Source: a virus
Length of the DNA: 64,000 bases
Direction: 5' to 3' (one strand)
Virus record (IMG/VR): IMGVR_UViG_3300035703_000089
Coordinates: 1-64,000 of that record
In this document: positions 30,001-57,366 of the stretch, piece by piece
Layout of the letters: every line of letters begins with the position of its first letter
Position numbering within the stretch: the first letter of the stretch is position 1
Program-made: the position numbers and the translations under genes
Notes under the pieces: generated by a model
What the model saw: only the letters and a program-made list of their open reading frames with translations
Told to the model about the DNA's origin: nothing
Databases searched by the model: none

Positions 30001-30637
30001 TATTAAGGATTTTCTCAACATCATCCATGTCACTATTACCAAATGACACAACATTTGCTAATTTATCTTCAGCTATTAATTCAGCTTCACGTTCTTCAAG
30101 AGTTTTAATCTTTGCACTTATTTCAGCAAATTTAGTTCTATCAGATTTATTAGCATTTAAGTTACGTTTTAATGTAGATATCCTATCAGTTATTTTATTA
30201 ATTTCATTTTGAAATCTATTAACTTTAGGTAATGTAGCTGGTGAATAATCAACTTCAGTTATTTCATCGCCATTAATTCTCTTATATTCCTCAATAAGCT
30301 CTTTAGGAATGTTCCAACTTATTTCAGTATAATATGTAGAAATGTTTTTATCTATATAAGCAACAGTTCCAAATTTATCTGACATAAATTCTTCATTAAT
30401 CCTATCTACAAGTTTCTGTCCCCAATTATTAGTTTTAGGTTTATCATCTAATTGAGGGTTATTCTTGTTAACCATTAAAAAGGTTTTATTTGGGGCAGTT
30501 TTTAAATAACGAGCAGAAGTCCTTTGATTATATTCAGGCTCAACATATCCAATATTAGGCACATCTGTAGGGTTAAATCCTACAATCTTAGCAATTCTTT
30601 TAATTATTTCTCTTCTATAATGTTGTTCGCAATCCAT
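27002..30637 (-). CDS. 1211-aa internal virion protein, last gene of the late block
   Basis: A 1211-residue Lys/Glu-rich protein, mostly helical with coiled-coil segments (about residues 140-200, 440-500 and 760-800). The C-terminal third contains hydrophobic stretches (GMGWNLFAPVNNTVVGFISNLIHA, MLIYLHLYMLTLILKSL) and a KKIVHGNYDPSSPVAIKKVTLGRAVTMFRNWVAEGF segment that I associate with the C-terminal parts of very large internal proteins of phages with virion RNA polymerases. Its ATG abuts the stop of the 5209-residue gene with no spacer, so it may be the detached C-terminus of that polyprotein. I infer a packaged, ejected protein that helps cross the envelope. No enzyme motif seen. Confidence 0.75.
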   Translation of the reverse strand: MDCEQHYRREIIKRIAKIVGFNPTDVPNIGYVEPEYNQRTSARYLKTAPNKTFLMVNKNNPQLDDKPKTNNWGQKLVDRINEEFMSDKFGTVAYIDKNISTYYTEISWNIPKELIEEYKRINGDEITEVDYSPATLPKVNRFQNEINKITDRISTLKRNLNANKSDRTKFAEISAKIKTLEEREAELIAEDKLANVVSFGNSDMDDVEKILNKDEISTSDLFYANKILHQWNNVVGTIFDANDLERTDGQYSLNVQAVNNIELRAKELSLKYTKVFENTVMNIFLKQGVTPTKEQIFGAKKEIDILQANLRDISMTNDVIFQVTSKIIKEANFKTEQEVIKTVKEVDALMDAVKKTVEYKQKGFDIFAQEDKDGKKTGMMTSRFSDVFYKESGKRRDDAKKTGNWEDFFKWKKENNILFDLRKLFYNEYKELDGGKEFSEEDITAHINDLKLQLGEKGYQEYYDRLQAKFDLYKKDLEAQKEYISSLEADQSAKDAMMEEWLLTNSPFVYAERVYEGKKIKLGEKFINPKGYKYTSEVPRRFTPDGQKTNWHDAKFDVIQDNPALYDYYKYTIDKFNELRDYLPDSAVEDLQYNYIPEIRKNIAELFSDKGIKGGLDGWYDKIISELTTSSPSGISYEERDPETGELIKTLPISMVGKNLKADEKSYDLARITKAFSIMALSFKHKSEIEDSIRLLEQVVNNSKEAVLNPDGTPKMNARNEAISVEGKLKNYRAQYNYAVEALLYNKRRIEEGVSKTKKLLNTEEKAIKADLEKQLAETTDEDAKKEIQAKIDELGSNVVASKVWDKVIQFAQLKGMGWNLFAPVNNTVVGFISNLIHASGNEDYTAGDYLKAYRLMLNSVGKSASLDALETKTAKKINNMMVNFNVVGEIDQAGYNSTAFESGVAKGLQKLSPYELTKRAEYLNQGSTFVAMLLNKKIKDLQGNERSMWEAYDEEGNWKTDEFPPQSEKEKSDFKIKLEQVKKIVHGNYDPSSPVAIKKVTLGRAVTMFRNWVAEGFAARFEGEKEDLLLGRSRKGRFITLKEQGLVQGPMLLLSQMANFLTFGGAFKTSLDSLSEVDKANMRKNAMEMLIYLHLYMLTLILKSLDSDDDDEKKALNYLININLRTQNDMAFFTSPLAFEKITQSSIPAMSIITDAAKLVQATQKTITGDPYYKTGIHKGDLRIRVAAEKNIPFLTQIERLYQGTSKAME

Positions 30638-33600
30638 TTAGCAAGGTTTTAATTCGTATAGATTTTTAATTTTACTCTTCTTTCTAGTTACAGGCATTAA
30701 GTCAGTGTCAGTTGGTTCATTTGTTACAGTACCAAATATATCATCTTCAGTAGTTAAACCTTTAGCAGGTCTATTGTTATCAGTTTTATCAGATAATACA
30801 TAAGCATTTTGTGTAGGTCTACTAAATGCAACATATTTTAATTTATTTCTTTCAGAAGCATTACTATTTTTATCTATGTTATTTTCATTAACTAATACAT
30901 TAGTATAAGTGCTTCCTTGAGATTTATGAACTGTTATAGCATATCCGTAGTCTAAATCTTTTTTAACTATTAACTGTCCACCTGGCCCATATAAGTTTTC
31001 AAGCAATAGGTATTTATTTTTAAATGCAAAATAACTAGGCCATAATTTTCTATTCTGTTTTGCAGCATTTAATTTCTGATTAAATATTTGAACAAATTTA
31101 ACATAATTATTTGTATTTGGAAGCAAAATATTTACACTTAATGGATTTCCTGGTTCATCTATTAAATCTAATTCAGCAGATATAACATCTAAACCATCAG
31201 AAGTAGTTTTATTTGATGTTTGAACAACTACGTAATCAGCACTATTTTCAATAGCTTCATAAGGGCCAAGCTGAATTGTATTGTAAGCCATTAATAAATC
31301 TCCTTGCAATACAGGCTCTGTAGGATTATCAAATAAACTATTTCTTATTATGCCATTCCAATATTTTACATCATCATTAGTCCATGTTAATATCTTAACA
31401 AAATCTTTATCTTTTTTATATTCTTCAGAATTATAAAGTTCAATAGCTTTTTTCTCAAATTCTTTATATTTTTCAGTAAAAACAATACCTTCGTTTTTAT
31501 TATTAATAGATGTAGTGTGGATAAATCTATCTATTAAAGAAGTTAAATTATTTCTTATAGAATCATATATTAGCATTAAAGGATTATCACCTTTTTGACG
31601 CTCAACTTTAGTTAATTCAGATTTATTAGGCAAAGAAAATACTTGACTTATTTGCTCTCCAACTGGAGGTAATTGAGCAGCATCACCCATAAATAATATT
31701 TTAGTACCTGCTTTTTCAGCTTCTTTAAGCAACAAATTAAACAAGTCTTTGTTTAGCATTGAAGCTTCATCAATAATAATTAAACCATACCTGTTTATTT
31801 CTTTTTCTCCTTTAGGATCAAATTGAGGTCTATTAATATCAAAGTTATCTAAATCAGTGTTAGGCATTAAACCTAATAGTTTCTGAATAGTATAACCAGT
31901 TTTTTTAGTAGATTTTTGTATAACTTTTTTAGCTTTATGAGTAGGCGCAGATACAGCAACTCTACCTTTATACTTATCAAGTATAGATTTAACTAAAGTA
32001 GTTTTACCTGTTCCTGCAAAACCTGACAATGTATAAAATAAATCATCACCTTTTAACCATTCATTAATATTATTAATAGCACTTACTTGTTGATCATTAA
32101 AAGTAATTACTCTACCATCAGGTAATTTGTACTGATTAGATTCAACAACTTCTGAAAATGGCGTTGAAATATTTTTAGTAGGATCTTTAGCTTCAGCAAA
32201 CTTATTTATTTGTTGAGGATCAACATCTCTGTTAGTATTAAATGCTGATAATAATAAAGCTTTTCTTTCAGGTTTACCTTTGTAATCAACTACATCAATA
32301 CCTGTTGAACCATCTTCACTTAATATTACTTTATAAGGTGCTCCAAAGTATTTATAATCAGCAGTTTTTTGCTCAACTTTAGGTGTAATTTTTACATCTT
32401 TAAAATCTTGAGTTGTATAACTTACTATTTTAGTATTAGCTTCTCCATGCGCATATTTAAATATGTCATTATTTCTTTGTAAAACACTAACATTATCAGA
32501 ATAATCATAAGATATTGAGTAAAGATTTATTATTGTTTTATTTTTAGTGTCAACTAAATATTTACCAGGTTTAAACCCTCCTCTTTTATAATCATATGCA
32601 CTTCCAGCATCTAAAACATATCTTTCTAATATATAGAATCTTTCAGAGCCTTTAAATATTTCATCTAAACTATATCCAATTGATTTAGATAATAGTTTTT
32701 CAGAAGCAGCATTTTTATGTAAATCATAATTACCATGAGTTGTAACTAGAGTTTTAGTTGGTGCATTTTTAATTACTTCATTAAATGCATCTTTAACAGT
32801 AAAATCTTTTTGTTCAGTAACAGGAGCAGAAGGTTGAGTAGTAGGTTTATTAGTTGCTTTAAAAGTATTAGCATATACATCTCTAATAGCTTGTTTAGCA
32901 GCTTCTTCAATCTCTTTTCCTTTATATTGTTCTCTTGGCACCCATTTACCTTCCTTTTGTACATTATAAGATTCAATATCTCTTGAACCTACGCCAGCAA
33001 AATTTTTAGTAAGAGTTGGAGTTTCAATCTCTTTCCAGCCATTATAATCCCATTTATGTTTAGTTGAATCATAACCTGTTTTAAGAAACTCAGTATCTTG
33101 TGTATACCATTTTTTTGTATCTAAATCAAATACATATACAGGTTTACCCATCTTTATTCCTAATTTAACAGCCGTATTAGTTCCACCCATAACTTCAGGT
33201 CTTGTAGTAGGACTGATTTCAGCTATAGCAAATACAGCATCAGCATTAGCTACTTGGTAATAATTTCTTACTTGAAGATTTCCTTGTAAAGTATCAGGAT
33301 ATTTTTCTCCAAGCAGTCTTTCTACCTCTAATCTAGCCTTGTCCATTTGTTCTTTAGTAAGAATAGTAGCTTTTACACCTGCATTTCTAAGTTTTTGAGA
33401 TAAATTAGCATTGCCAGCATCTTTATAATGCATATGATTAGTAACACCAAATTCTCTACCTATTAAATCCCAAAAAGTATCTCCGCCATAAGCTCCACCA
33501 GAATGATTCGTGTAACTTAAAGGATTATTGTCAATAGTGCTTTCAGATAATTCCTCAGCATATTGAGGATTAGTTAAGTTAATTAACTCTACTATATTAG

Positions 33601-36600
33601 ATACAGCATTTGATAATACTGAATTTTCTTTAACAGGAAATCCTACTGAAGCTAATAATTTGTTAACTAACTCAACAAATCTATCAAGTATTGTTTTATT
33701 GCTATCAAATGGAATATCATTAAGTATTTTTTGGAATTCCATATCAGTCATAGCCATTGTAAAGAATTCTGAAAACTTATAAGCTCCATAATTCTTGCTT
33801 ACTTGAATTTCATCAACGTGTTTTTTAGACTCATATGTTTTAACAAATTCATCATATTGAGCTTGCCACTTAGGATTACTTTTAATTTTAGCAACTAAAG
33901 TATTTTGCATTGTTTTTAATGAATTGCAAATTCTTATTTGCTCATCAGTTAACTCACCTTTATTACCAGTTTCTAAATACTTTTCATAATCTTTAGCAAT
34001 ATAACCTGTTAAATGATGTACTAACTCGTGTAACAATGTTCTTTCAAAATCTTCGTCAGATCTAGTATTAGCTTCATTAATAACAACTGTACCTTCTTTA
34101 GTTTTTCTATCATAAGCATAAAATCCTTTAACGTTTGGATCATTACTTATAGCAATGTTAACTTTAGGACTATTTTTTAAAGCCTTTCTTATTTCAGGCG
34201 CTAATGCTTTATGTAGTAAATTTGTAGATGTTTTAGATATAATGTCTAATGCATTATCAATGTTTACTATATTATACTTAATAACTCTTCTAGTATCTGA
34301 TAAATTATTAGCTACACCAGGCATTTCTTTTTCAACAACATCTCTAGTATCAGTTTTAACAGGTTGTTTAGGTAAAGGCTTATTAGCTTTATTCTCATAA
34401 ACTAATGAATCAACGTTAAATTCACCTTGTGTATATTCTGAATAACCAAATGAACCTAATGTATCTATTAACACATATTTACCATTTCCAGTATATTGAT
34501 AAAGTTTAAAATCTAAATTAACAAACTCTGGTAATACTTCTAAAAACTCATTAGTTTCAGGCATAACTCTACCAACTAGTATATCACTAGCAAGTTTATT
34601 TGTTGTTGTAAATTCAGTAATAGTTTTATTAAAATCACGCTTAATTGACTTAGGATCAATTTGTGAAAGATCATCTTTTAACTTAATAGCTTCACCAGGA
34701 TTATGTTGTATATATTGTTTAACAAAGTTAGATACTTCATAGTAATTAGATTTTTGATTTAAATCAAGTATACCTAATAATTCTGGATCCTCAAAATTTA
34801 AGTTTCTTAAGTTCTCATCAAAACCTATTGCTCTTAAATATGAATTAGGTATATACTTACCAAACTGAATAGCTTGTTGTATACCGCCTGATATGTAAAA
34901 ATAAGTAATCATGTTCTGAGCTAACTCAGTAGTTGCTTCATTACCTATTAAATCAATAAATCCTTGGTAAACATTTAATTCATCAAAATTCTCTGCAGCT
35001 CCTGCATTGTATTTAATTAATGAAGGTTTATTACCAGTTGGATCTATATCAACCATTAAACGTGTTATAAATGGATTTTTAGAGGTCTTTTGTAATTCCT
35101 TAACTTGTGACGCTAAAGATTTATTACCAGCTCTATCAAAGAATAACTTTTCACGTAATGACCTAACATTTTCATTATCTAAACCTAAACTTTGCTTAGA
35201 ATAAACAAATGATTTAATACCATTAAATATCTTTAATCTTTTTTCATTAGTCAATACTTTTTTACCAAGTACTGATTGTAGCTCATTAAATACTTGTGAT
35301 ATCTTACCATAAGGAAATAAATGATACCATAGACTATTGTTTAATCTTAATGCATCATCTGTTGCAAAACCATTAATAGTATTATCTAATAAGTTTTCAA
35401 CATTAGCAATGTATTTGTTATCAAATAACTCATTAACCTTTTCTTCCTTGTAGTTAGACTCAATTAATGATGGAGATATACCAGCACTATCAGTATTAAT
35501 AGTTAACTGAATATTACTAATTTCTTTACCTATTTCCCTTGCTTTATTAAACTTAACTAAAGCTCTAATCTGTGTTTTATAATAGTTAGGATCTTTTTCA
35601 CCCATCTCAATACTACTCCACATTTCTTCCTTAGTTAAAGGGTAGTCAGGATCCATTAAAGATGCTGCAAGAAAAGAGTCTATATTACCTTCAGTAGCAT
35701 ATTTGTTTATTAACTTAGTAATAATAGTTTGTTCAGGGTTAGATATAAACTCATCATTTACAGAGTCTTGTGACCTAGCCATTTCATTAGCATAGTCAAA
35801 TATTGCATCTTGTGAAGTTAATGGTGCTATAAATGATTCATCAAATCCTACTGCAGCTAATGCTCTTTCAGCATCAAATGTATAATTATTAGAGTTAATC
35901 TTTTCTAAGATTTGTTCCTTTTCATTATCTACAGCAGCTGACTGATAAGCAGAAACAGTATTGATTTTAGGTTTATTATTTATACCATCTTTTTCAGATA
36001 TATTATTAAGTTCAATTGCTTTACCTGATTCGTCACCAAATACTAAGTTAATTTTAGTTTCTATAGGATTAAAACCACCTGAAACAGTTCTTAAATATAA
36101 ATCTTTGCCTTGTGATATTGCAGTAAATACAGAGTCTAATGATTTAACACCAGTACCTGATTTGCCTGCACGAGCCTTTAAATACTTTTCTTTTTGATAA
36201 GTATCATTTAACTTAGTAGCTTTAAATTTAGATTCTAATCTTTTACTTCTATATGAATCAACTTTATTAGCTATACTTGGTAGTTCACCAAATCCTAAAG
36301 GATTAACTATGTTAGTAAATAAATTAGGATTTGACATTACAGATATATGAACATCTAATAATTCATTTTGTAATTTCTTTTTAGCTGATGAATCATCTCT
36401 TACAAGTTTACCATTTTCAATTTTAGCATTGTACATGTAAGTATATAACTTATCCACGTCAAAGTCACTACCCATTTGTTTAGTAAAATCTTTAGGCGCT
36501 ATAACTAAATCTCCCATATAACTTGGTAAAAACCCTACTACTTCTACGTAACTCATAGAACTATGTAACTGTGTAGGTATACGGAAACCAAATCCTGTTA

Positions 36601-39600
36601 ATAATTTTGGATCTATTTTAGAAAGATCTAAGTATCCATCTCTAGTCATAAATCTTTGTAGATTTACAGGATTACCTTCTTGATCTTTTAACTTATTAGT
36701 AATTAATATTTGAGCAGGCAATACTTTGCCTGTTTTTTTGTCTATTCTCATAGGCAATAAACCTGTTTCAGGGTTATAAGACTTAGTATAAATAATATCT
36801 TTACTCTTGCCTCTAAATCCTTCTTCAGAACCTAATACAAATGAATTACCACGTAATTTTTGTTTACGCACCTTATTATCAACTAATGAACTTAATAAAG
36901 CTTCAATCTTATTTGCAGATGTACTAGCCCATAAAGGCATTGCAAATTGATCTATTATTTCATTAACTTTTACTAACCTTAAAGCATCAATATCATTTTG
37001 TGGCCATCCTCTACCTTTAGCTTCTTCAATAAGTAATTTTTGTACTTTTACAAGGTTTAAATTACCACTATCATCAGTTATTTCTTTTAATAAAGCTCTT
37101 TTACCATTTGCAAATAATTGCTTGTTTAAAGCGTTGTATTCATCTTGTAATTGTTTACCATTAATAGTTTCACCATTATAGTTAAAACCTTCCATATCTA
37201 ATATGTTGGCAAATAATAATTTAGCTTCTTGTGAACCTCTATTTACAGAATCTTTTTCAGCATCAAAAGGTACATCTTGTTGTATTCTAAAACCACTTCT
37301 ATCTAATAACATCTTATTATCAAATACTAGATTGGATTTAATAGTACCGTCTTGATTAAATATATCTATAAATTCTTTAGGGCCACCTACTTTAGTAGCT
37401 GTTTTAAATGCTAATCTATCAACGCCATTCTTAATCATAGCATCTCTTAGCTTATCCATTTCAGGTGTTAATCCTTTAACTAAAGGAAATGAAGATGATT
37501 TAATGTATATCTTCCTGTTGACATCCATTGATGGTTCTAATTGCGTATTAACATAAACAGGTTTGATAGGTTGAAATATATCAACAAAGTCATATTTATT
37601 TAAAGTACCCTTTTCTTCCCTTTCAAGTAACTCTTTAACTTTTTCAGGACTTATTTTACCAGATTTTTCTAGTACATATAAATGCTCAGCAAGTATAGTA
37701 AGTTCTTGAGCGTCAGTACCTTCAATATCATAATAAGGATAAGAATCTAAAGCTTCTTTTTCTTTTTTACTTAATTTATTAAATTCTTCTACTGATAAAC
37801 CATCCAACATTTTTAATAGTTGTGGAAAATTCATTGAAACACTTAATGCGCCACTTGCATCTTTAGCAAACGCAACAGTAAATTTATTATTTTTTGAATC
37901 AGCTAATTCTAATCCTGGCGCAATTTCAGCAGCAAGACGTTTACCTACGTTAATCCAAGTTTTTTCAGCATCCTTTTTAAAGAATAGTGCAGGATCACCT
38001 ACAAACAGTTGAAATGAATTAGCATTTGCTATAACATAATTAATTACATAGTCAGCTGCAGCATAAGTAATTACATCACTCATGTTCTTATTAGCTTCAC
38101 GTAAATTATTTCTTGCAGCAGTTATATAAGTTTTATCAGCAAATTTAAATGAATCTTTAGTTGTTAAACCTAAGTCAGTCCAATGCTGTTTCTTAGCTTC
38201 AATCAATTTTAATGCATGATCAGCAACAAATTCCTTAATTATATTTTGATTTATTTGATTTAAAGGTTTAAGAGTTTTTCTAGTAATTTCTTTACCATTT
38301 TCATCAGTAATAGTTGTTTCTTCCCATAATGCCTTATTGTTATTTAATTCCTCAAAAAAATAAAACATATTAGGGTTATAACCATCTATATCATTCTTAA
38401 TATTATAAGATTGCAGAATTCTTTTATATTCAGCTTCAACAACATCATATAAAGCATCTTTAGTACTTTCACTTAATTCAATACTTCCATCTTCATTAAA
38501 CAACACTTGTACATTATGCCTCAAAGCAGTAATACCAGTCATTGTAGATTTATCTGACATTGTAGGGAATAAGAAATGAGATATTTTCTCATCTTGCCTT
38601 CCATTATTTTGATTCCAGAATAAAGCTAATTTAGTTAACTCATGTTCCCTAGATGACATATGATCTAAAGTAACACCTTCTTTTTTATATTTTAATGTAT
38701 CTAAATAGAAATAATCAAATACTTGACTAAAGTATGAATCCTTATTCTTAAGTTGTTTACCCCAACTAGATGTTGAAGCAAAACTTGTACTCATTAAATT
38801 GTTTAAATAGTTACCAACATTACGTTTTAATCTGTAAAACTGATTGATAAAATACTTATTATTTGAATAAGCAAATACACTTTTACCTTCACCATTTTTA
38901 AATGAATTACTAAAGTGTGCATCAGAATATAATGCTTCAATAGCAGCTAATTTCTTAATACCACTATTGTTAGTTAAAGGATTGTTTGTATCAAACGTAT
39001 CATCAGCACTTAATGTTTCTTTAGATAGATTTGCAACTATGTTAAAGAATATACCATTTTTATCAGTAAATTGTTTAGCATATGGACTCGTAGGATTGTT
39101 TTTAATGGCTTCTAAAGTATCCATTGATACTTCTATGCCAATTTTAGCTAACCACGCTTTAACAGCGTTTAAATCGTTTTTATCAATACTATTTAATTCA
39201 TCAACTAACTCTTTACGTTTAGAGTTATCAATTATTAAATTACCAGGAGTAGTTTCTTTTACTAAATCAGTAGTTTTAAGATTTGCTAACCATTTAGATT
39301 GTATAGTTTTAATAATAGCATTTTGGTCAGAATCCATTACTTTAATGGAAATTCCACCTGTTTTAATGCTACCAAATATTTCAGCTATTTTAAAATTTGC
39401 ATAATGCTTAGTTGCCCATTGAACAAATTCATTTTTAATTTGATCAGATGCATTATCTAATTCATTTTTAACTTCTTTAACCCAAGGTTTAACTTTAGCA
39501 ATTTCACCTAATCTAGCACTAATATCTGCATAAGATGCTTCCATGCCAGCTAATTGACCTGATAGGTAATTAACTACCTCATCAAACGGCATATAAGTAT

Positions 39601-42600
39601 CTAATTGTAAATAAGATTTAGTAGGACTAGTAATAAATGATAAAAATTGCTTTAACCTAGATGACATTGATTCTTTAGAGTCAATTAAGAATGTTGCCCC
39701 ATCATCATAATTTACCTTTTCATTATTAGATTCAACATCTTCAACACCTACTACATCTTCAACAGGAGCTTCAGTAGTTTTACCTTCATTACTTATTTTA
39801 CCAGGTTGACCAGGTACTTCTTTAACATTAAACAAAGTTAATCTTTGTTCAGATTGTTTAACAAACTCTTCGTAATTATCTAGTATCTTTTTAAATTCAT
39901 TAGCATAATTAACTTTACCACGATCCCTAAATGCTTTTTCATACTCAACAAAAGTGTTTTTAAGTTCATTATATAATGCAGATTTAGTTTGAGCACCTTT
40001 CTCTTTTAAAGATTTAAGTACAAACCCATTCATTATATTAACAACCTGACCTTGCCTAAATGCATTAAAGCCTGGTATTAATGATGAAGCATCAGCAATT
40101 TCTTGTTTAGATTTAGGTGATAATGTTGGAGGAGATAAATCAACAGATCCTGTAAATTCTTTAAATCCTTGTATATCTTGTTTAGAACCTAGTATATGAA
40201 TTTGTTCTGGTTCAAATACCACATAACTTTCAACATTTTGAGATTCATCTTCAATGCCTTTAATAGTATCAAAATTATCTTTATTTAAATTTTTTACTAT
40301 TTCAGAATTTACTTTAGAAATTTCTTTTATGTTTTTACTATTTAAAACGACAGAATACTTTTTAAGTTCTTTTTTTGCTTCTTCTGTAGTCATTATTACT
40401 CCAGAATACAAAGCATGTGATTTTATTTTTTCTGCAATAAGCTCTTCTGCATATTTTATATTATCTGTAAAATATATACCGTTATCTCTTTTAGTAAAAT
40501 TATTTATAATATTATAGCCTACATGATAAACAATATCTTTTACTTTACTTTCAGGAAATATAGTATCAAGATATTGAGAGTATGCTTGTAGAGCTTGTTG
40601 TTTTTGTTGTGGAGTTACTTTCTTTAATATATCTTTTGTAGCTTTTAGTTTTTCTTCTTTAGTTAAAAGAGGATTTTCAGATATTTGATCAAGATCTGCA
40701 ATTTCTAAATAACTATTTATAAATGCATCCTTTTCTTCTGTAGTAGCTATTTGACCATCAATAAACTTAATTTCTTCTGCAAATCTTTGTTTAGAAATTT
40801 CTTCAGGACTTTGGTTTTCACTAAAATAGAAATATCTATTATCAGAAGTTTTTACTAAATCAATATAAAAAGCATCTGTATTATCTCCAGCTCTAAATAA
40901 AACAGTAGATTTATCTTTAAATATATCTTTTAGTTTTTCTGTTAAAGCTAATTTATTTTTAGTTTCTTTACTATATTCTTTAAACCCTAAAGCTTCGTAC
41001 ACAGCATTAGCTAATTCAGGATTAGATTCAAATAGTTCTGCAACACCTTCTTTAATAGGCTGTTTAGCTTCAGAACTTAATACTACAGGTGATTCATCAA
41101 CTAAATCTTTCTCATCATTTAAAGCATCAAAATCTATTTTACCTAATTTTGTAGGATCAGACTTTGTACTAGGTGTAGTATAACTAGGTTTTGATGAGTC
41201 ATTAAGAATATTCTTACCTACCTCAACAGCTTCTTCAAATGTTATTACAGGTTGTACAAATAGAGTGTAACTACCATCTGGTAACTTAATATCAGATACG
41301 TTAGTAGTTGTATTATTTTTAATAAATTCAGTGTAAGTAGATTCTTTATAAGTTACTTTACCTTTGTTGTCAATATATACTTGTTTAAATGAAGGTTTAT
41401 TTAAGTGTTTTAAAAATATAGAAACAAATGATCTTTTAATTTGTTTATTAAAATCACTCTTATTAAAGTTTGCTAAATTACCTACAGACTTAAGAACGCC
41501 TCCACCAGTACCATATTGTATTCCGCTACCTAGTACATTTAAAAATAATTTTGTATCATTTTTAACATTATTATTTAAGTCAGCTTGATCAAAACTAGCG
41601 GTAGCTACGTATAGTTCAAAGAAACTTCTTAAACCATTAGCTGTAAGAATATCTATACCTGTTTGTTTAAGTATTTCATTACCAATCTTAGCATCTTGTT
41701 TAAAGAATGCTTCAGCAGCATTAGTTAATGTATCAGCAATTTCATCACTAATCTTATTATTAAATACTGGTATAGCAATAGTTTTACCTGCAACAGGTGT
41801 ATCAACTACCATGTATACTAAACCAGCTTTAACATCTTTGTTAATAGGCTGATTGCCATTTAAAGGCTTATCTAATCCTTCATAAAAACTATTATTCTTA
41901 CCTATTACAAATTTAACATTAGGGTTTTTAATAACTTCAGAAGTTGGTTTATCAACTTTCTTAGTAGTAAAGTTTAATTTACCTAATGTTTTATTACTTA
42001 TAAATACTTTCTTAGTTCCTTTAGCTACTATATCTTCACGCAAAGCTTTTAACGCATTACGTTGTATTTCAATGTTATTACCCTTAGATGCTACGTTAGA
42101 TTCTGTAATCCAATCTAAAGTATGTAAATACCCTATAATCTTACCTTCTTTATTAGTAATCTTAATAGGTACTAAGTAAGGATTATTTTTAGTTTGTTCA
42201 TAAGTAATAACTGTACCATCTTTTAAAGTTAAATTAAATGTAGTATCAACTGATAAGTTTAACTCATCACCTACTTGATATTGTTTACCTGACAATAACA
42301 TAGGTTCTTGGATTAACTCATTAAGTTGATCTTCAGATATATCTTCTTTTCTAGAATAAGTTACTTCACCTAATTTAGCAAACTTTGATATATAAGATTT
42401 AGATAAATACGCAATACTCTTTGCTGCATTAATAATTAAATCACCTAATGTAACTGAATTACCTTGTGGACTTACAGATTCACCTTGATCATTAGTAAAC
42501 TCTAAATCTTCATTTAATTCATTTTCAAGGGCTTTTCTTTCCTTATAACCAATTTCAGGTACAATCCCATCATTAGCATTGACAATAATATTTTCCTTAG

Positions 42601-45600
42601 TATTTTGAGCATCTTCAATCTTTTCAATTTGTTTATTTAATTCTTCTTTAACACCATACTTTTGTTTTACTAGATTCTCTAAATCATTAAATCTTTCATT
42701 AATAATGTTAATAGAATTTTCTAATACTTCTTTAGGTAAATTAGCATTAGTTAAATCACTAATAGCCTTTTCCTTTTTATTATTAAGATCTTGTAATTCA
42801 GATTCAAGTGTAGCAACTTTAGGTTTACCACCTTCTAAAGATTTTAGTTCTGCATCAATTTTAGATTGGTTTTTAATATATCCATTAACATCTGAAAGTA
42901 TTCCTAAAATACCAAAAGGATTATTACTTTTATCTTCTCTAATACTTTTACCATCCCATATTCCAGTTCTTTCTTTTTCAGCATAAAAAGTTATTTTATC
43001 ACCAACTTTAAGCTGTGATGCTACTTTATCTGGATTTAATATTTCAGTTCCTTTTTTAGCTAAACCAGTGCCATCAGATATTTCTTTTAGAGAATCTCTA
43101 GTAAAAGTATTTGCTTTTTCTATATCAGCTTTAGTATTAGTAGTAGTAGTTGCACTTTTTAAAGCAGCTAGTTCTGCATCATATTTAGCGTTAATTCTTC
43201 TTTGTATACCTTCTATAAGTTCTGGTTCATAATACTCTCTAAGTTCGTTACCATCTGTAAATCTAATTACAGCTGTACTTTTATCAGCTAAAGGAGTAAT
43301 AGCTCTTATTTTAAAACCATCTAAATTTACTATTTCTTTTAATATAGGTTGTCCTGGAATGCTTGGTAATTCTTCTTCTACATCAGCTTCAACAGTATCT
43401 CCTATTTTAAAATCTGTATAAGATTTAGGAGCTTTATCTAACTCTTCTTGCCTTCTTCTTTCTATATCAGCTCTCTTAGCTTCTATGTCTGTAGCAGTTG
43501 TTGCAGGTTGTTTATTAGATAATAGTTCTTCTACCGCTTTTACTAATTCAGGATTACTACCATCTTTTTTAGCTTTGTGATAAGCTTCTGAAACATCAGT
43601 AAATATATTTGAATCTTCTAATCCTGCTATTTTTTGAATTTTTTCATACTCATTATATTTTTGTTGTTTATAATAAGCGTTGTATAATCCATCGGTTGTA
43701 CTTTTTACATCTTTTAATACATTTTTAGTTTCTATATCAGTAACACCTAATTCAGTTTCTAAATTTTTTTCTTCAATATTACTTTTAACAAATAAGTTAT
43801 TCCAGTTAATTTTATCTTTTGAGTTCCACCATTTTTCTTTTTTTGTTTCATTGTCTACCAATAAAATACCTTTTAAATACTGATTAGATCCTTTTCCTCC
43901 AACATTAAAAGCTTTTATTGTATAACTATTAGCAACGTCTTGAGTGTTTGTATATAAATTATATAAAATATCACCTTTTTTTAAATCAAATTCATTTACT
44001 GGTATAAATTTATCTTTACTTCTTTTTTTACCAACGTTTAACTCAGTTTCAGTAGGTTCTATTGTTTCACCAAATATATCACCTGCAGGTTGACTAGTTA
44101 CATTAGCTTTTTGTTCTTCAAAATTAGCTTCATTCTCAGCATCCTTGTTAAGTATATCTAGTATATCTGTAGGTATATTATTGCCAGCAACTTTTAATTC
44201 TTCAACTCTACTATCAATAGCTTTTTTATTAGCATTGTAATAAGCTAATTCTTCTTCAGATGCTAATTGTTCACCACTGTTAATCTTGTTGGCAAACATG
44301 TCAATAATCTTTGCTTGTTCAGTCTTTGCAGCTTGTTCAGCAGCTAATTTAGCTTCATTCTGAATTCTAGCTAATTCCTCTTCAGCACCTTTTTTAATCT
44401 CATCTCTACCTTCAGGTGTAGATAATTTATATAAAGCCTCTTTATTTTGATTAAATGTTCTAGTATCTAACTCCTGATTTCTAATTAAATTAATTAACTT
44501 AGAGTCATTAGGAGATATTAATTGCTTATCAATATCTTCTTTAGAACTATAAACTCCTTCAGATAATAATAAGTTATAATTTTCAGCAATTGTTAATTGT
44601 AATTGTTTAGCCTTATCTGCAAATTGAGGTATATCTTTAATAGCCTCATATTGCATTTTAAGATTTTTAAACTGATACAATGTAGGATCTTGTAAGTTTA
44701 ATGAAAAAGCATCTTCAGCTTTTAAAGATGTTAATTCAGTATTTATATTTTTTAATCTATTTTCAGTTAATTTTTGATCTATTGCATAATCTAATTCAGT
44801 AGCCTTTGCAATATCATCTTTAGTATTATCAGATGCTAATGTATTCCTATAATCTTCAGCAAATTTAATTACCTGTTTCCTGTCATTTAAAGTCTTTTGT
44901 GACTTAACTCTTTCTTCAGGATCATCCATTGCTTCAGGAGTCATATCTAACATTGATTTAAAATTATCAAGGTCAGTTATATTATCCATTAATGTTTTAT
45001 GAAAAACATCATCAGTAGTTCTATTAAATGATTGTTCATCACCTTTAATTACAGCAGTATGTAATTTAATAATAGCTTCTTGTTGTTTCTGAAGCTTTTC
45101 AATATTTTTATTTTCACTAAATTTACCAACACCTGCAAATATACCTCCGCCTAATCCACCTAAAAATGCACTAGTCCAAAATTCACCATCTTTTGCATAA
45201 TCTAATGTTCTGTCAATCAATGATGATTTATCATCTTCTAATACACCAGATTTAATTAATGCGGCACGTTTAGTTTCTTCATTAGTAATAAACTGATAAG
45301 CTTCTTCACCAGCCTCTTGCCCCATTGTTGTAAGTACATCAGATAAACCAATTCTTTGATCTTTAATCATTTGGCTAAATGACTTATTTAACAACATGTA
45401 CTGAGGTAAGTCAGTTGCAATATTTGCCCAATTTAATTTATAGTTATTAGCTGCAGCTTCACCAGCTATAGCTTTTTTCTCATCTTCAGTAAATAATTGA
45501 TTAGTGTTAGGATTAATCTTGCCTTCTAATTTCCTATAAGTATCTTCAAATGTTTGACCACCTTCCATGATGTTTTCCATTTGACGAGATATTACAGCAC

Positions 45601-46267
45601 CTGTAATACCTTTTAAGCCAGCGCTTAAATTTTTAGTACCACTAATAGCTTCAATACCTCTAATAAGTTTAGCTCCACCTAAAGTTTTACCTAGTTTAGA
45701 TAAACCCATTACAGCTCCTTGTGCAGGAACCATCATACTTACTGTTGTTAATATAGACGGAATATTTTCACCCCACCATCCATAAGATAATGGACTAAAC
45801 CCTTCAGATTCTTTAGTTCTGTAAACAGGTAGTTTAAGTTTATCTTCAGCAGATTGTATTGCATCTGCAATGTCATTATGAAAACCTTCTTTAGCTCTTT
45901 CAGTAAAGTCAGTATAATTTCTGTAATCTAGTAAATATGAAGCGTCTTTAATTATATCTAATCCAGTTTGTGTAACTGCATTAGCTAATCCTGAACCTAT
46001 TTTAGCAAGACTTGACTGTTCCTGAGCTCTTTGATATTGAAATGGTAAATTTTCATCACCATAATTTTCAAAATATTGTTGAGTTAAAGGTTTATCATAT
46101 TTAGATTCACCAAATAAATTAAATTGTTCTTTTGTTGAATAACCTGGTTGAGGTGTTATAACTTGTCCAACATAGCTAAAATCTTCTCCAGCTTTAACTC
46201 TTTTTGAAAATTTATCAATAGCATCTTCTTGATTATTATTTTTTTTAGGTAATTCTTGTTTAGCCAT
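30638..46267 (-). CDS. 5209-aa giant virion protein: RNA polymerase, ART, zincin, SLOG, SF1 helicase
   Basis: One uninterrupted frame. Hydrophobic segments near residues 165-205 and 360-380 could contact membranes. An ART-like domain (polyvalent type) spans about 1910-2040 (YHVGYNIINNF, GIYFTDN, YVVFEPEQIHILG). The RNA polymerase beta-prime-like catalytic barrel is near 3227-3290: GFRIPTQLHSS, then DFDVD at 3268-3272 with three Mg-binding Asp, as in crAss-like virion polymerases. A zincin has HELVH at 4080-4084 and a possible third ligand E4167. A SLOG-like Rossmann domain covers about 4255-4430 (SGGAYGGDTFW, GKPVYVFD, FAGVGSRDI). An SF1 helicase of RecD/Dda type has Walker A at 4749-4757, DEAS, GDAAQLPPV, VHKSQGSTY and YVAFSRP. 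It is probably packaged, ejected and used to transcribe phage genes in the new cell. Confidence 0.88.
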   Translation of the reverse strand: MAKQELPKKNNNQEDAIDKFSKRVKAGEDFSYVGQVITPQPGYSTKEQFNLFGESKYDKPLTQQYFENYGDENLPFQYQRAQEQSSLAKIGSGLANAVTQTGLDIIKDASYLLDYRNYTDFTERAKEGFHNDIADAIQSAEDKLKLPVYRTKESEGFSPLSYGWWGENIPSILTTVSMMVPAQGAVMGLSKLGKTLGGAKLIRGIEAISGTKNLSAGLKGITGAVISRQMENIMEGGQTFEDTYRKLEGKINPNTNQLFTEDEKKAIAGEAAANNYKLNWANIATDLPQYMLLNKSFSQMIKDQRIGLSDVLTTMGQEAGEEAYQFITNEETKRAALIKSGVLEDDKSSLIDRTLDYAKDGEFWTSAFLGGLGGGIFAGVGKFSENKNIEKLQKQQEAIIKLHTAVIKGDEQSFNRTTDDVFHKTLMDNITDLDNFKSMLDMTPEAMDDPEERVKSQKTLNDRKQVIKFAEDYRNTLASDNTKDDIAKATELDYAIDQKLTENRLKNINTELTSLKAEDAFSLNLQDPTLYQFKNLKMQYEAIKDIPQFADKAKQLQLTIAENYNLLLSEGVYSSKEDIDKQLISPNDSKLINLIRNQELDTRTFNQNKEALYKLSTPEGRDEIKKGAEEELARIQNEAKLAAEQAAKTEQAKIIDMFANKINSGEQLASEEELAYYNANKKAIDSRVEELKVAGNNIPTDILDILNKDAENEANFEEQKANVTSQPAGDIFGETIEPTETELNVGKKRSKDKFIPVNEFDLKKGDILYNLYTNTQDVANSYTIKAFNVGGKGSNQYLKGILLVDNETKKEKWWNSKDKINWNNLFVKSNIEEKNLETELGVTDIETKNVLKDVKSTTDGLYNAYYKQQKYNEYEKIQKIAGLEDSNIFTDVSEAYHKAKKDGSNPELVKAVEELLSNKQPATTATDIEAKRADIERRRQEELDKAPKSYTDFKIGDTVEADVEEELPSIPGQPILKEIVNLDGFKIRAITPLADKSTAVIRFTDGNELREYYEPELIEGIQRRINAKYDAELAALKSATTTTNTKADIEKANTFTRDSLKEISDGTGLAKKGTEILNPDKVASQLKVGDKITFYAEKERTGIWDGKSIREDKSNNPFGILGILSDVNGYIKNQSKIDAELKSLEGGKPKVATLESELQDLNNKKEKAISDLTNANLPKEVLENSINIINERFNDLENLVKQKYGVKEELNKQIEKIEDAQNTKENIIVNANDGIVPEIGYKERKALENELNEDLEFTNDQGESVSPQGNSVTLGDLIINAAKSIAYLSKSYISKFAKLGEVTYSRKEDISEDQLNELIQEPMLLSGKQYQVGDELNLSVDTTFNLTLKDGTVITYEQTKNNPYLVPIKITNKEGKIIGYLHTLDWITESNVASKGNNIEIQRNALKALREDIVAKGTKKVFISNKTLGKLNFTTKKVDKPTSEVIKNPNVKFVIGKNNSFYEGLDKPLNGNQPINKDVKAGLVYMVVDTPVAGKTIAIPVFNNKISDEIADTLTNAAEAFFKQDAKIGNEILKQTGIDILTANGLRSFFELYVATASFDQADLNNNVKNDTKLFLNVLGSGIQYGTGGGVLKSVGNLANFNKSDFNKQIKRSFVSIFLKHLNKPSFKQVYIDNKGKVTYKESTYTEFIKNNTTTNVSDIKLPDGSYTLFVQPVITFEEAVEVGKNILNDSSKPSYTTPSTKSDPTKLGKIDFDALNDEKDLVDESPVVLSSEAKQPIKEGVAELFESNPELANAVYEALGFKEYSKETKNKLALTEKLKDIFKDKSTVLFRAGDNTDAFYIDLVKTSDNRYFYFSENQSPEEISKQRFAEEIKFIDGQIATTEEKDAFINSYLEIADLDQISENPLLTKEEKLKATKDILKKVTPQQKQQALQAYSQYLDTIFPESKVKDIVYHVGYNIINNFTKRDNGIYFTDNIKYAEELIAEKIKSHALYSGVIMTTEEAKKELKKYSVVLNSKNIKEISKVNSEIVKNLNKDNFDTIKGIEDESQNVESYVVFEPEQIHILGSKQDIQGFKEFTGSVDLSPPTLSPKSKQEIADASSLIPGFNAFRQGQVVNIMNGFVLKSLKEKGAQTKSALYNELKNTFVEYEKAFRDRGKVNYANEFKKILDNYEEFVKQSEQRLTLFNVKEVPGQPGKISNEGKTTEAPVEDVVGVEDVESNNEKVNYDDGATFLIDSKESMSSRLKQFLSFITSPTKSYLQLDTYMPFDEVVNYLSGQLAGMEASYADISARLGEIAKVKPWVKEVKNELDNASDQIKNEFVQWATKHYANFKIAEIFGSIKTGGISIKVMDSDQNAIIKTIQSKWLANLKTTDLVKETTPGNLIIDNSKRKELVDELNSIDKNDLNAVKAWLAKIGIEVSMDTLEAIKNNPTSPYAKQFTDKNGIFFNIVANLSKETLSADDTFDTNNPLTNNSGIKKLAAIEALYSDAHFSNSFKNGEGKSVFAYSNNKYFINQFYRLKRNVGNYLNNLMSTSFASTSSWGKQLKNKDSYFSQVFDYFYLDTLKYKKEGVTLDHMSSREHELTKLALFWNQNNGRQDEKISHFLFPTMSDKSTMTGITALRHNVQVLFNEDGSIELSESTKDALYDVVEAEYKRILQSYNIKNDIDGYNPNMFYFFEELNNNKALWEETTITDENGKEITRKTLKPLNQINQNIIKEFVADHALKLIEAKKQHWTDLGLTTKDSFKFADKTYITAARNNLREANKNMSDVITYAAADYVINYVIANANSFQLFVGDPALFFKKDAEKTWINVGKRLAAEIAPGLELADSKNNKFTVAFAKDASGALSVSMNFPQLLKMLDGLSVEEFNKLSKKEKEALDSYPYYDIEGTDAQELTILAEHLYVLEKSGKISPEKVKELLEREEKGTLNKYDFVDIFQPIKPVYVNTQLEPSMDVNRKIYIKSSSFPLVKGLTPEMDKLRDAMIKNGVDRLAFKTATKVGGPKEFIDIFNQDGTIKSNLVFDNKMLLDRSGFRIQQDVPFDAEKDSVNRGSQEAKLLFANILDMEGFNYNGETINGKQLQDEYNALNKQLFANGKRALLKEITDDSGNLNLVKVQKLLIEEAKGRGWPQNDIDALRLVKVNEIIDQFAMPLWASTSANKIEALLSSLVDNKVRKQKLRGNSFVLGSEEGFRGKSKDIIYTKSYNPETGLLPMRIDKKTGKVLPAQILITNKLKDQEGNPVNLQRFMTRDGYLDLSKIDPKLLTGFGFRIPTQLHSSMSYVEVVGFLPSYMGDLVIAPKDFTKQMGSDFDVDKLYTYMYNAKIENGKLVRDDSSAKKKLQNELLDVHISVMSNPNLFTNIVNPLGFGELPSIANKVDSYRSKRLESKFKATKLNDTYQKEKYLKARAGKSGTGVKSLDSVFTAISQGKDLYLRTVSGGFNPIETKINLVFGDESGKAIELNNISEKDGINNKPKINTVSAYQSAAVDNEKEQILEKINSNNYTFDAERALAAVGFDESFIAPLTSQDAIFDYANEMARSQDSVNDEFISNPEQTIITKLINKYATEGNIDSFLAASLMDPDYPLTKEEMWSSIEMGEKDPNYYKTQIRALVKFNKAREIGKEISNIQLTINTDSAGISPSLIESNYKEEKVNELFDNKYIANVENLLDNTINGFATDDALRLNNSLWYHLFPYGKISQVFNELQSVLGKKVLTNEKRLKIFNGIKSFVYSKQSLGLDNENVRSLREKLFFDRAGNKSLASQVKELQKTSKNPFITRLMVDIDPTGNKPSLIKYNAGAAENFDELNVYQGFIDLIGNEATTELAQNMITYFYISGGIQQAIQFGKYIPNSYLRAIGFDENLRNLNFEDPELLGILDLNQKSNYYEVSNFVKQYIQHNPGEAIKLKDDLSQIDPKSIKRDFNKTITEFTTTNKLASDILVGRVMPETNEFLEVLPEFVNLDFKLYQYTGNGKYVLIDTLGSFGYSEYTQGEFNVDSLVYENKANKPLPKQPVKTDTRDVVEKEMPGVANNLSDTRRVIKYNIVNIDNALDIISKTSTNLLHKALAPEIRKALKNSPKVNIAISNDPNVKGFYAYDRKTKEGTVVINEANTRSDEDFERTLLHELVHHLTGYIAKDYEKYLETGNKGELTDEQIRICNSLKTMQNTLVAKIKSNPKWQAQYDEFVKTYESKKHVDEIQVSKNYGAYKFSEFFTMAMTDMEFQKILNDIPFDSNKTILDRFVELVNKLLASVGFPVKENSVLSNAVSNIVELINLTNPQYAEELSESTIDNNPLSYTNHSGGAYGGDTFWDLIGREFGVTNHMHYKDAGNANLSQKLRNAGVKATILTKEQMDKARLEVERLLGEKYPDTLQGNLQVRNYYQVANADAVFAIAEISPTTRPEVMGGTNTAVKLGIKMGKPVYVFDLDTKKWYTQDTEFLKTGYDSTKHKWDYNGWKEIETPTLTKNFAGVGSRDIESYNVQKEGKWVPREQYKGKEIEEAAKQAIRDVYANTFKATNKPTTQPSAPVTEQKDFTVKDAFNEVIKNAPTKTLVTTHGNYDLHKNAASEKLLSKSIGYSLDEIFKGSERFYILERYVLDAGSAYDYKRGGFKPGKYLVDTKNKTIINLYSISYDYSDNVSVLQRNNDIFKYAHGEANTKIVSYTTQDFKDVKITPKVEQKTADYKYFGAPYKVILSEDGSTGIDVVDYKGKPERKALLLSAFNTNRDVDPQQINKFAEAKDPTKNISTPFSEVVESNQYKLPDGRVITFNDQQVSAINNINEWLKGDDLFYTLSGFAGTGKTTLVKSILDKYKGRVAVSAPTHKAKKVIQKSTKKTGYTIQKLLGLMPNTDLDNFDINRPQFDPKGEKEINRYGLIIIDEASMLNKDLFNLLLKEAEKAGTKILFMGDAAQLPPVGEQISQVFSLPNKSELTKVERQKGDNPLMLIYDSIRNNLTSLIDRFIHTTSINNKNEGIVFTEKYKEFEKKAIELYNSEEYKKDKDFVKILTWTNDDVKYWNGIIRNSLFDNPTEPVLQGDLLMAYNTIQLGPYEAIENSADYVVVQTSNKTTSDGLDVISAELDLIDEPGNPLSVNILLPNTNNYVKFVQIFNQKLNAAKQNRKLWPSYFAFKNKYLLLENLYGPGGQLIVKKDLDYGYAITVHKSQGSTYTNVLVNENNIDKNSNASERNKLKYVAFSRPTQNAYVLSDKTDNNRPAKGLTTEDDIFGTVTNEPTDTDLMPVTRKKSKIKNLYELKPC

Positions 46268-51588: not shown

Positions 51589-51623
51589 ATAACATAAGGT
51601 GTTATAATAACACCAAATGTTAT
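51589..51623 (-). terminator. composite hairpin at the end of the muzzle gene
   Basis: GGTGTTA-TAA-TAACACC forms a perfect inner stem; ATAACAT and ATGTTAT form an outer stem of seven pairs separated from it by AA/AA internal loops. The outer arm overlaps the stop codon of the 1528-aa gene (51620-51622). The minus-strand sequence after it is A/T-rich but lacks a clean T run, so it may be a weak terminator, a processing site or a 3'-end stabiliser. Confidence 0.5.
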
Positions 51624-56206: not shown

Positions 56207-56925
56207 TAGTGACGTTTTAAATTCTCTACGTTATTAATATTTCTGAAATTTGTAGTGTAAGCGTTTTGACTAGGTATTAATCTAACCATAACATTCTTTA
56301 AGCTGTTTAATTGTGCAAGATTTGGCATATTTGCAGAACCTTTAGCTGCTCCTACGTACCATAACCATTCTTGTTCAGATTTTTGCATAACCTTATCAGC
56401 AGTATTTCCTTTACGCCAATCTCTGTAATCAATCATATAAGTTACGTATGATGAACAAGCTTTCATAAAATGAACATCATCTGGTATTAATGGATAACCT
56501 TCATCATCAATTGGTACACCTAAATATGATATGCAAATATAATCTTGCTGCTTTATTTGTGATTCAGTAATATCAGTTATAATATAACTGTTGTTTATAT
56601 AGAATTTATTTTCAGTACAACATCTTGGCAATATGTTAGTTTCACAACCAAATTCAGGAATTTGATTAGCATTAGCCCAAGACAATACTCCATTTATATA
56701 AGTAATAGTTATTAACTTATAGAAGTTTGCAGGTAATTTAATCTTACCATCTACTATAGGTAAAGTAGTAGCTATTTCATCATACTGATAAAACGTACCT
56801 ATTAACTCTAAGGCTTCAGCAATCCATTCAATTACATGAGATTCATTAATCTCAGTTGTTAGACCTAAATCCCTATATAGTTTAGCCATTACAGCTTTAC
56901 TACTTACATATCCATTTATTGCCAT
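56206..56925 (-). CDS. ring / tail tubular protein
   Basis: A 239-residue protein with the features of portal-proximal ring (adaptor-like) proteins: an N-terminal helical stretch (AVMAKLYRDLGLTTEINESHVIEWIAEALELIG), then beta strands with ATTLPIVDGKIKLPANFYKLITITYING, and a C-terminal helix SEQEWLWYVGAAKGSANMPNLAQLNSLKNVMVRLIP. This helix-strand-helix plan is typical of T7 gp11-like tail tubular proteins and crAss-like ring proteins. It lies between the 145-residue protein and the muzzle, overlapping each by one base. Confidence 0.75.
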   Translation of the reverse strand: MAINGYVSSKAVMAKLYRDLGLTTEINESHVIEWIAEALELIGTFYQYDEIATTLPIVDGKIKLPANFYKLITITYINGVLSWANANQIPEFGCETNILPRCCTENKFYINNSYIITDITESQIKQQDYICISYLGVPIDDEGYPLIPDDVHFMKACSSYVTYMIDYRDWRKGNTADKVMQKSEQEWLWYVGAAKGSANMPNLAQLNSLKNVMVRLIPSQNAYTTNFRNINNVENLKRH

Positions 56926-57362
56926 TAATTATAAAAATCTAATTGTTTATTATTTACAGCATCAGCTATTAATCTTGATGCAGTTCTACAAGGTTTAAAA
57001 CTATAATACCTTTTACCTTTTACACCGCAATGAACTTTGCTCCATTTCCATTTATAGCCGTATTTAGAGCCATGATAAACAATCATACCTGTTTCTTTAC
57101 TAAGTTTATAATTAACCTTCCAGTTCCTTTTATTATCCTCAGTAAATGTATTTTGAAACTTATGTATAAAAAGTTTACCTAATTTAAATGGCAATGTTAA
57201 AGTTTCACTGCTGTATACTATTTTATTCCTTACCTCTAAATTAAACTCTTTTAATATTTTAGAGTAAGTCTGATAATCTACGTAACTTCTATTCTTTTTT
57301 ATTGAAGTTTCTTTATAATATTTGTAAAAATCTCTAAGTCCTATATCCTTAGTATAACCCAT
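56925..57362 (-). CDS. conserved small late protein of unknown function
   Basis: A 145-residue, very basic, Tyr/Lys-rich protein: LRDFYKYYKE, VDYQTYSKILKEFNLEVRNKIVYSSETLTLPFKLGKLFIHKFQ, KVNYKLSKETG, YKWKWSKVHCGVKGKRYYSFKPCRTASRLIADAV. Proteins with FYxxYK, YxxVLKxFNxxIxxxIV and LPFxLGxLxIxK motifs sit beside ring/muzzle genes in Bacteroidota phages as far as I recall, without known role. The high positive charge suggests DNA or RNA contact. Its start lies four bases after the stop of the gene upstream. Confidence 0.68.
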   Translation of the reverse strand: MGYTKDIGLRDFYKYYKETSIKKNRSYVDYQTYSKILKEFNLEVRNKIVYSSETLTLPFKLGKLFIHKFQNTFTEDNKRNWKVNYKLSKETGMIVYHGSKYGYKWKWSKVHCGVKGKRYYSFKPCRTASRLIADAVNNKQLDFYN

Positions 57363-57366
57363 TTAT

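What the first reader, a model, noticed from the sequence alone, without database searches (positions are those of the whole stretch)
30638..46267. A 5209-residue virion protein fuses RNA polymerase, ART, protease, SLOG and helicase
Seen: one frame of 15.6 kb with FRIPTQLHSS...DFDVD (3229-3272), an ART-like stretch near 1910-2040, HELVH (4080), a SLOG-like part near 4255-4430 and a complete SF1 helicase at the C-terminus. Known: crAss-like phages carry a virion RNA polymerase with a DFDxD metal loop, and polyvalent proteins of phages join ART, zincin and helicase-like domains that act as injected effectors. Inference: here both themes are merged, so the polymerase would arrive in the cell together with anti-host effectors and a helicase that could clear or melt its template.
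Basis: partly seen in the sequence, partly recalled or inferred. Interest (0 to 1): 0.86.

Follow-up and report, generated by a model that had tools for sequence, protein, structure and literature searches.

The report
Giant crAss-like virion RNA polymerase
A phage related to the common gut crAss phages encodes one 5,209-residue protein that joins the RNA polymerase it packs into its particle to a peptidase-like domain and to exchangeable host-targeting and DNA-handling domains; the polymerase is a known kind, but the domain set and its cassette-like swapping between phages look new.

Summary
Residues 2888-3986 are a crAss-type two-barrel RNA polymerase: sequence match to phi14:2 gp66 (PDB 6vr4, E 1.6e-26); AlphaFold model pLDDT 83, best Foldseek hit 6vr4 (E 4e-32). 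Around it lie a gp67/gp47-like N-terminal part, an ART-PolyVal module, a zincin, a SLOG/DprA-like domain and a complete SF1B helicase. Muzzle, tail and IHF-like genes next door are crassvirus-like.

Giant crAss polymerases are already known, and N4 virion polymerases are known to be fused to metallopeptidase and ART. The zincin is not an optional effector: 68 of 76 sampled crAss-type polymerase ORFs carry it, and it is homologous to the zincin of N4 virion polymerase. ART, SLOG and helicase are optional and change position.

What appears new: the full domain set (also in three other contigs, in another order); a SLOG module shared with unrelated N4-type virion polymerases; and cassette-like exchange (SLOG 86-90% identical between phages whose polymerases are about 32% identical; short DNA islands at module borders). 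Virion location and activities are inferred.

The parts
30638..46267 (-). Giant gene, 5,209 aa: gp67/gp47-like N-terminal part, ART, virion RNA polymerase, zincin, SLOG-like domain, SF1B helicase
45059..46132 (-). N-terminal part (about residues 46-403), homologous to crAss001 gp47 and phi14:2 gp67, which are separate virion proteins there
   Evidence: profile E 6e-56 and 3e-58; leave-one-out 9e-68
40979..41055 (-). Short DNA island, outer upstream border of the ART module (IKEGVAELFESNPELANAVYEALGFK), 76-94% nucleotide identity in many divergent phages
40088..40750 (-). ADP-ribosyltransferase module of the ART-PolyVal kind (residues 1840-2060)
   Evidence: (8 of 10 family members match PF18760, best 9e-10)
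40522..40620 (-). Short DNA island, N-side border of the ART core (KVTPQQKQQALQAYSQYLDTIFPESKVKDIVYHV)
40154..40219 (-). Short DNA island, C-side border of the ART core (VFEPEQIHILGSKQDIQGFKEF)
34310..37606 (-). Two-barrel single-subunit RNA polymerase core (residues 2888-3986)
   Evidence: PDB 6vr4 phmmer 1.6e-26; alignment A1; AlphaFold pLDDT 83, pTM 0.83; Foldseek to 6vr4 E 4e-32, TM 0.73
36452..36466 (-). Catalytic metal loop DFDVD; the three aspartates are invariant in 44 aligned relatives
33563..34267 (-). Zincin-like domain (residues 4001-4235), HELVH at 34016-34030; homologous to the zincin of N4-type virion RNA polymerase
32948..33520 (-). SLOG superfamily (DprA-like) module (residues 4250-4440)
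32840..32915 (-). Short DNA island just downstream of the SLOG module (KEIEEAAKQAIRDVYANTFKATNKPT)
30743..32116 (-). SF1B helicase (residues 4718-5175) with motifs I, II, III, V and VI; Dda/RecD2/PIF1 type
27002..30637 (-). Next gene, 1,211 aa, homologous to phi14:2 gp65 (RNA polymerase-associated protein)
   Evidence: E 1e-10 to phi14:2 gp65
51620..56206 (-). Muzzle protein homologue (crAss001 gp44)
   Evidence: PDB 7qok E 7.8e-19
56206..58053 (-). Three genes: tail tubular protein (56206-56925), IHF-like (56925-57362), homologue of phi14:2 g074 virion protein (57367-58053)
   Evidence: E 3e-15, 5e-8, 9e-7 to phi14:2

Best explanation
[quoted passage not shown] The protein is loaded into the particle and ejected into the cell with the DNA, where the polymerase core transcribes the early genes. 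The zincin is a constant companion of virion polymerases, in crAss-type and N4-type enzymes alike, and most likely serves packaging, ejection or processing of the protein. The ART, SLOG-like and helicase domains are optional passengers sitting at tolerated sites: the gp67/gp66 junction, the tail behind the core and the next gene. They arrive with the polymerase and act in the first minutes: ART on host proteins, SLOG on nucleotide-derived defence signals or on single-stranded DNA, helicase on the entering genome. ART and SLOG modules spread between distant phages as cassettes. Shown: gene, domain homologies, synteny, distribution, module exchange. Inferred: virion location, ejection, all activities.
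For: Polymerase identity. Synteny with phi14:2 and crAss001 (muzzle, tail tubular, IHF-like, gp65-like). Virion location by homology: phi14:2 gp65, gp66 and gp67 are annotated from MS/MS of virions; crAss001 gp47, gp49 and gp50 were detected in virions by MS (PMC10172136); Fpv1 gp33 is annotated as a virion structural protein. Zincin in 68 of 76 polymerase ORFs and homologous to the N4-type one: phrog_2206 matched by 17 of 20 members, best 1e-11; N4 virion polymerase structures E about 5e-5; Pylas polymerase 3e-13. SLOG in 61 of 79 SLOG-scan loci within a crAss-type polymerase ORF and inside N4-type polymerases of Klebsiella phage Pylas, Alteromonas phage PT15-A5 and contigs L117, L123, L167. 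Cassette exchange: SLOG 86-90% aa identical to L095-L097 while the catalytic polymerase segment is 32-34% identical, synonymous codon identity 0.73-0.74 against 0.41-0.50; ART borders share codons above saturation (0.73-0.76 against 0.54 in the polymerase; 92 of 105 pairs). Insertion sites.
Against: No proteomics or biochemistry exists for this phage; the contig is a 65 kb fragment without portal, terminase or capsid in view. 14 of 135 zincin copies lack the HExxH motif, so peptidase activity may not be the selected function. The ART model is of low confidence (pLDDT 60) and its best Foldseek hits are not significant. Frequencies for SLOG and ART placement come from scans seeded with these domains.
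Confidence: 0.62

Rival explanations
1. The extra domains serve transcription and genome entry rather than host manipulation: the SF1B helicase opens or pulls in the incoming DNA, the SLOG/DprA-like domain binds single strands, and ART regulates the phage's own proteins.
For: The helicase is almost always behind the core in the same ORF (41 of 42). PHROGs names the SLOG family DprA-like; cellular DprA binds single-stranded DNA. Virion polymerases fused to entry proteins are proposed to couple DNA entry to transcription (PMC10770324).
Against: 20 of 76 polymerase ORFs have the helicase, only 7 the SLOG, so neither is needed for transcription. The fast exchange of SLOG and ART between phages is more typical of conflict genes. 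Pfam's weak hits place the SLOG nearer YpsA than DprA.
Confidence: 0.27
2. It is a polyprotein: the zincin cuts the chain so that polymerase, ART, SLOG and helicase act as separate proteins.
For: A zincin with HExxH is present; processing by such peptidases was proposed for polyvalent proteins (PMC5512222). Relatives often encode the parts as separate ORFs.
Against: The zincin is equally common in ORFs with no extra domains (47 of 76 have the zincin alone), and some copies lack HExxH. In P23-45 the fused virion polymerase was found at full size (PMC10770324).
Confidence: 0.2
3. The fusion is an annotation or assembly artefact or the accessory domains are decaying passengers.
For: Single metagenomic contig; no read data available here.
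Against: Three independent contigs carry all five domains in one ORF (L066, L122, L139); complete ORFs of 4,000-6,400 aa are common among relatives; helicase and SLOG motifs are intact.
Confidence: 0.04

Closest known systems
Cellulophaga phage phi14:2 gp66 (PDB 6vr4) with gp65 and gp67
   Same: Homologous polymerase core with FRIPTQ-type motif and DxDxD loop, same predicted fold, same gene order, gp67-like N-terminal part and gp65-like next gene
   Different: In phi14:2 these are separate genes of 1,797, 2,180 and 1,421 aa; the zincin is in gp65; no ART, SLOG or helicase was found with the module profiles
Crassvirus giant polymerases cr118_1 gp14, cr109_1 gp53, cr130_1 gp79, cr272_1 gp23
   Same: Single ORFs of 4,300-6,400 aa containing the crAss-type polymerase; cr118_1 has the helicase, cr109_1, cr130_1 and cr272_1 the SLOG
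   Different: None of those examined has ART, zincin, SLOG and helicase together (cr130_1 only partly examined)
Flavobacterium phage Fpv1 gp33 (phrog_16227)
   Same: 4,401 aa virion structural protein, 27.6% identical over residues 2198-4233, zincin in the same place
   Different: Ends after the zincin; no SLOG, helicase or ART
N4-type virion RNA polymerases (phage N4 gp50, Klebsiella phage Pylas gp65)
   Same: Virion polymerase in a very large protein with homologous zincin, and in Pylas and others a homologous SLOG; ART fusions reported (PMC5512222)
   Different: The polymerase is of the unrelated T7 single-subunit fold; the N4 profile does not match the window protein
Thermus phage P23-45 gp96
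   Same: 5,002 aa virion protein with a fused two-barrel polymerase and a metallopeptidase domain (PMC10770324)
   Different: Fused to a tail tape-measure protein in a long-tailed phage; no ART, SLOG or helicase reported in the passages read
Polyvalent proteins of phages and conjugative elements
   Same: Multi-domain proteins combining ART-PolyVal, zincin and nucleic-acid enzymes, thought to be injected (PMC5512222)
   Different: Polymerases in that survey are N4-type; the word SLOG does not occur in that paper

Membership tests
crAss-type virion RNA polymerase | DxDxD metal loop in a conserved context | tested here: met
   DFDVD at 3268; aspartates invariant in 44 relatives
crAss-type virion RNA polymerase | Two-barrel single-chain fold as in 6vr4 | tested here: met
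   AlphaFold pLDDT 83; Foldseek best hit 6vr4, E 4e-32, TM 0.73. Barrels not traced strand by strand
crAss-type virion RNA polymerase | Packaged in the virion and transcribes early genes | not testable with these tools
   Only homologues have MS evidence
Crassvirales | Muzzle, tail tubular, IHF-like and ring genes in conserved order | tested here: met
Crassvirales | TerL, portal, MCP phylogeny | not tested
   Not seen in this 65 kb fragment
N4-type virion RNA polymerase | T7-like single-subunit polymerase domain | tested here: not met
   N4 profile finds Pylas, Alteromonas, L117 and L167 but not the window protein
Polyvalent proteins | Several effector, peptidase and nucleic-acid domains in one chain | tested here: met
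Polyvalent proteins | Injected into the host | not testable with these tools
   inferred from virion homologues
ART-PolyVal (PF18760) | Match above curated cut-off | tested here: inconclusive
   Window copy 17.7 bits against 31.2; 8 of 10 family members match, best 9e-10
ART-PolyVal (PF18760) | ART fold and H-Y-acidic/amide residues | tested here: inconclusive
   YHVG, GIYFTD and EPEQIHIL present; strand-helix order compatible but pLDDT 60, Foldseek not significant
Zincin metallopeptidase | HExxH motif in a zincin profile | tested here: met
   HELVH 4080; phrog_2206 1.8e-8, phrog_87 6e-6. Third ligand and activity not established
SLOG superfamily | GGxxGxD and GGT nucleotide-binding motifs, SLOG profile | tested here: met
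   phrog_768 matched by 10 of 10 members, best 3.6e-15; cpYpsA only weakly
SF1B helicase (Dda/RecD2/PIF1) | Motifs I, II, III, V, VI and whole-domain profile | tested here: met

The most novel reading that the evidence does not exclude
Virion RNA polymerases, of two unrelated folds, are shared docking platforms for a pool of exchangeable injected modules. Short DNA islands at module borders act as recombination arms, so that phages whose polymerases are nearly unrecognisable to each other swap almost identical SLOG and ART cassettes. The SLOG then works as a preloaded counter to NAD-derived defence signals of the Thoeris kind.
Probability: 0.3. Interest if true: 0.85.

Novelty: new variant of a known kind. 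Interest (0 to 1): 0.64.

Why it matters
Virion RNA polymerases are the first phage enzymes at work in the cell. If the same zincin and SLOG modules have been joined independently to two unrelated polymerases, they probably meet a common need of a polymerase that must be packed, threaded through a tail and survive arrival; that gives a concrete handle on the open question of what the thousands of extra residues in these proteins do. The recurrent ART and SLOG cassettes are also candidates for virion-borne counter-defence. A 2022 survey described phage SLOG domains as typically stand-alone and predicted that they counter ADP-ribose signals (PMC9503650); their fusion to virion polymerases would put them in the cell before any phage gene is expressed, which can be tested.

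Tried and rejected
A single-sequence relative search with the polymerase found nothing; one call failed on frame. PDB searches with the SLOG and ART alignments gave only spurious hits. Foldseek of the ART model gave no significant hit; PARP10 catalytic domains recur among the weak ones. tblastn of the ART module in annotated phages and plasmids found nothing. A bacterial-genome scan with the ART alignment found 19 loci, mostly metagenome bins of Patescibacteria and others, not followed up. The idea that the protein is a record in size was dropped: relatives reach 6,386 aa (cr272_1) and a review quotes about 6,000 aa. The idea that the zincin is an anti-host effector was dropped because it is nearly constant. 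Literature searches found no paper linking crAss polymerase with ART; the library lacks most subscription papers, including the phi14:2 polymerase paper. Coordinates refer to stop-to-stop frames and can be one or a few residues off.

Full report
What is there. The window is almost the whole of a 65,167-base virus record. On the minus strand, 46267 to 30638, one frame of 5,209 codons runs from ATG to TAA. It abuts a 711-aa gene before it and a 1,211-aa gene after it.

The polymerase. Residues 2888-3986 align with phi14:2 gp66, crAss001 gp50, Fpv1 gp33 and crassvirus giants, with the three aspartates of the metal loop invariant. A single-sequence search of the PDB finds only 6vr4, the phi14:2 virion polymerase, E 1.6e-26. 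AlphaFold with 44 related sequences gives pLDDT 83 and pTM 0.83. Foldseek puts 6vr4 first (E 4e-32, TM 0.73 on the query) and then large subunits of cellular polymerases, which are not individually significant.

The surroundings. In transcription order the neighbours are homologues of a phi14:2 ring/virion protein, IHF-like protein, tail tubular protein and muzzle, then two large proteins, the giant, and a homologue of gp65. [quoted passage not shown] The window thus has gp67+gp66 in one chain. In phi14:2 gp65-gp67 are annotated from mass spectrometry, and in crAss001 gp47, gp49 and gp50 were found in virions (PMC10172136). That is the basis for calling this a virion protein; it is inference for this phage.

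The other domains. The zincin (4001-4235) alone matches phrog_2206, the N4-type virion polymerase family, at 1.8e-8; 17 of 20 members of its alignment do so. The alignment also matches solved N4 virion polymerase chains (about 5e-5) and an internal virion protein (2.7e-10). The SLOG-like domain (4250-4440) matches phrog_768. The helicase matches Dda, RecD2 and PIF1 profiles and has motifs I, II, III, V and VI. The ART is the weakest for the window copy alone (E 0.0066, below cut-off), but 8 of 10 relatives match PF18760, best 9e-10. Leave-one-out profiles and 200 shuffles exclude chance.

Distribution. A scan of 2.9 million viral contigs with the polymerase alignment found at least 527 relatives, of which the best 80 were kept; 76 are distinct. 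In the polymerase ORF itself 68 have the zincin (3 more in another ORF), 20 the helicase, 7 the SLOG and 5 the ART (4 more in another ORF). This sample leans towards polymerases similar to the window's. The full set of four occurs in the window and in L066, L122 and L139, in the different order ART-polymerase-SLOG-helicase-zincin. Scans seeded with SLOG and ART show where these modules sit: SLOG mostly behind the core but sometimes far in front of it; ART in front of the core, behind it, at the end of the preceding gene or, most often, in the first third of the next gene. 61 of 79 SLOG loci have the SLOG inside a crAss-type polymerase ORF.

Two unrelated polymerases, the same modules. The SLOG is 43% identical to a segment of the virion RNA polymerase of Klebsiella phage Pylas, an N4-type enzyme, and also occurs in that of Alteromonas phage PT15-A5 and in contigs L117, L123 and L167, before the polymerase domain in some and behind it in others. 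In a SLOG tree the N4-type copies fall in three places among the crAss-type ones; starred branches force at least two changes. Zincin and SLOG have thus been joined to both kinds of virion polymerase, and the SLOG more than once.

Cassette exchange. The window SLOG is 86-90% identical in protein to L095-L097 while the catalytic polymerase segment is 32-34% identical and its synonymous codons are at chance. Nucleotide similarity starts and stops close to the module (about 32830 to 33514). The ART has three short DNA islands of 66-99 bp that recur at roughly 80-98% nucleotide identity in dozens of phages, around a middle part that is only 22% identical in protein. Among 15 distinct phages carrying both regions, identical codons at conserved residues are 0.73-0.76 in the ART borders and 0.54 in the polymerase, where codon usage predicts 0.54; the excess holds in 92 of 105 pairs and 14 of 15 phages. 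The scan patterns select amino acids, not codons, so this is not a selection effect. Pairs are not independent, and DNA-level constraint on the islands is an alternative to recent exchange.

Mechanism. Most likely the chain is packed, ejected and refolded; the core makes early RNA; the zincin has a general role in packing, ejection or processing; ART, SLOG and helicase are optional early-acting modules. For SLOG, two readings stand: countering NAD-derived signals, predicted for phage SLOG domains in general (PMC9503650), or binding single-stranded DNA as cellular DprA does (PMC7824862). The exchange pattern favours the first, but nothing here tests it.

Known and new. Known: crAss virion polymerases and their size, fusion of virion polymerases with metallopeptidase and ART in N4-like phages, a fused polymerase in a 5,002-aa virion protein. 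Not found in the papers I could search: the five-domain chain, the SLOG shared by two polymerase classes, and the exchange of ART and SLOG cassettes between giant virion polymerases.

Noticed in passing
window 21608-25282: A class II (B12-dependent type) ribonucleotide reductase gene is interrupted by two group I introns (Rfam 22393-22625 and 23548-23782), with ORFs 22696-23376 (weak HNH match) and 23872-24348 inside the two insertions; relatives have the gene uninterrupted.
   Followed up: partly
window 40979-41055, 40522-40620, 40154-40219, 32840-32915: Short DNA islands conserved at the nucleotide level across dozens of divergent phages, at the borders of the ART module and just downstream of the SLOG module.
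   Followed up: partly
window 6782-13539: Cluster with glutamine amidotransferase (9051-10658) and amidoligase (10648-12249) genes, resembling the ligase, aminotransferase and amidoligase cluster of phi14:2 g038-g041.
   Followed up: no
window 2799-3653: Spore photoproduct lyase-like radical SAM gene (PF20903, 1.5e-26), with about 68-69% identical DNA in several relatives.
   Followed up: no
window 26613-26939: Very lysine/threonine-rich, histone H1-like small protein next to the end of the early gene block.
   Followed up: no
L144, L194: Two ART border sets in tandem in one phage, suggesting duplicated ART modules.
   Followed up: no
L019, L025, L026, L018, L079, L086: Zincin copies in which the first histidine of HExxH is replaced (for example EEIVH, EELFH, KELMH), suggesting loss of peptidase activity with the domain kept.
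   Followed up: no
window 48458-51517: 1,019-aa protein with recurring Gly-Gly motifs (YGG, NGG, MGG); its middle part resembles the protein after the muzzle in crassviruses.
   Followed up: no
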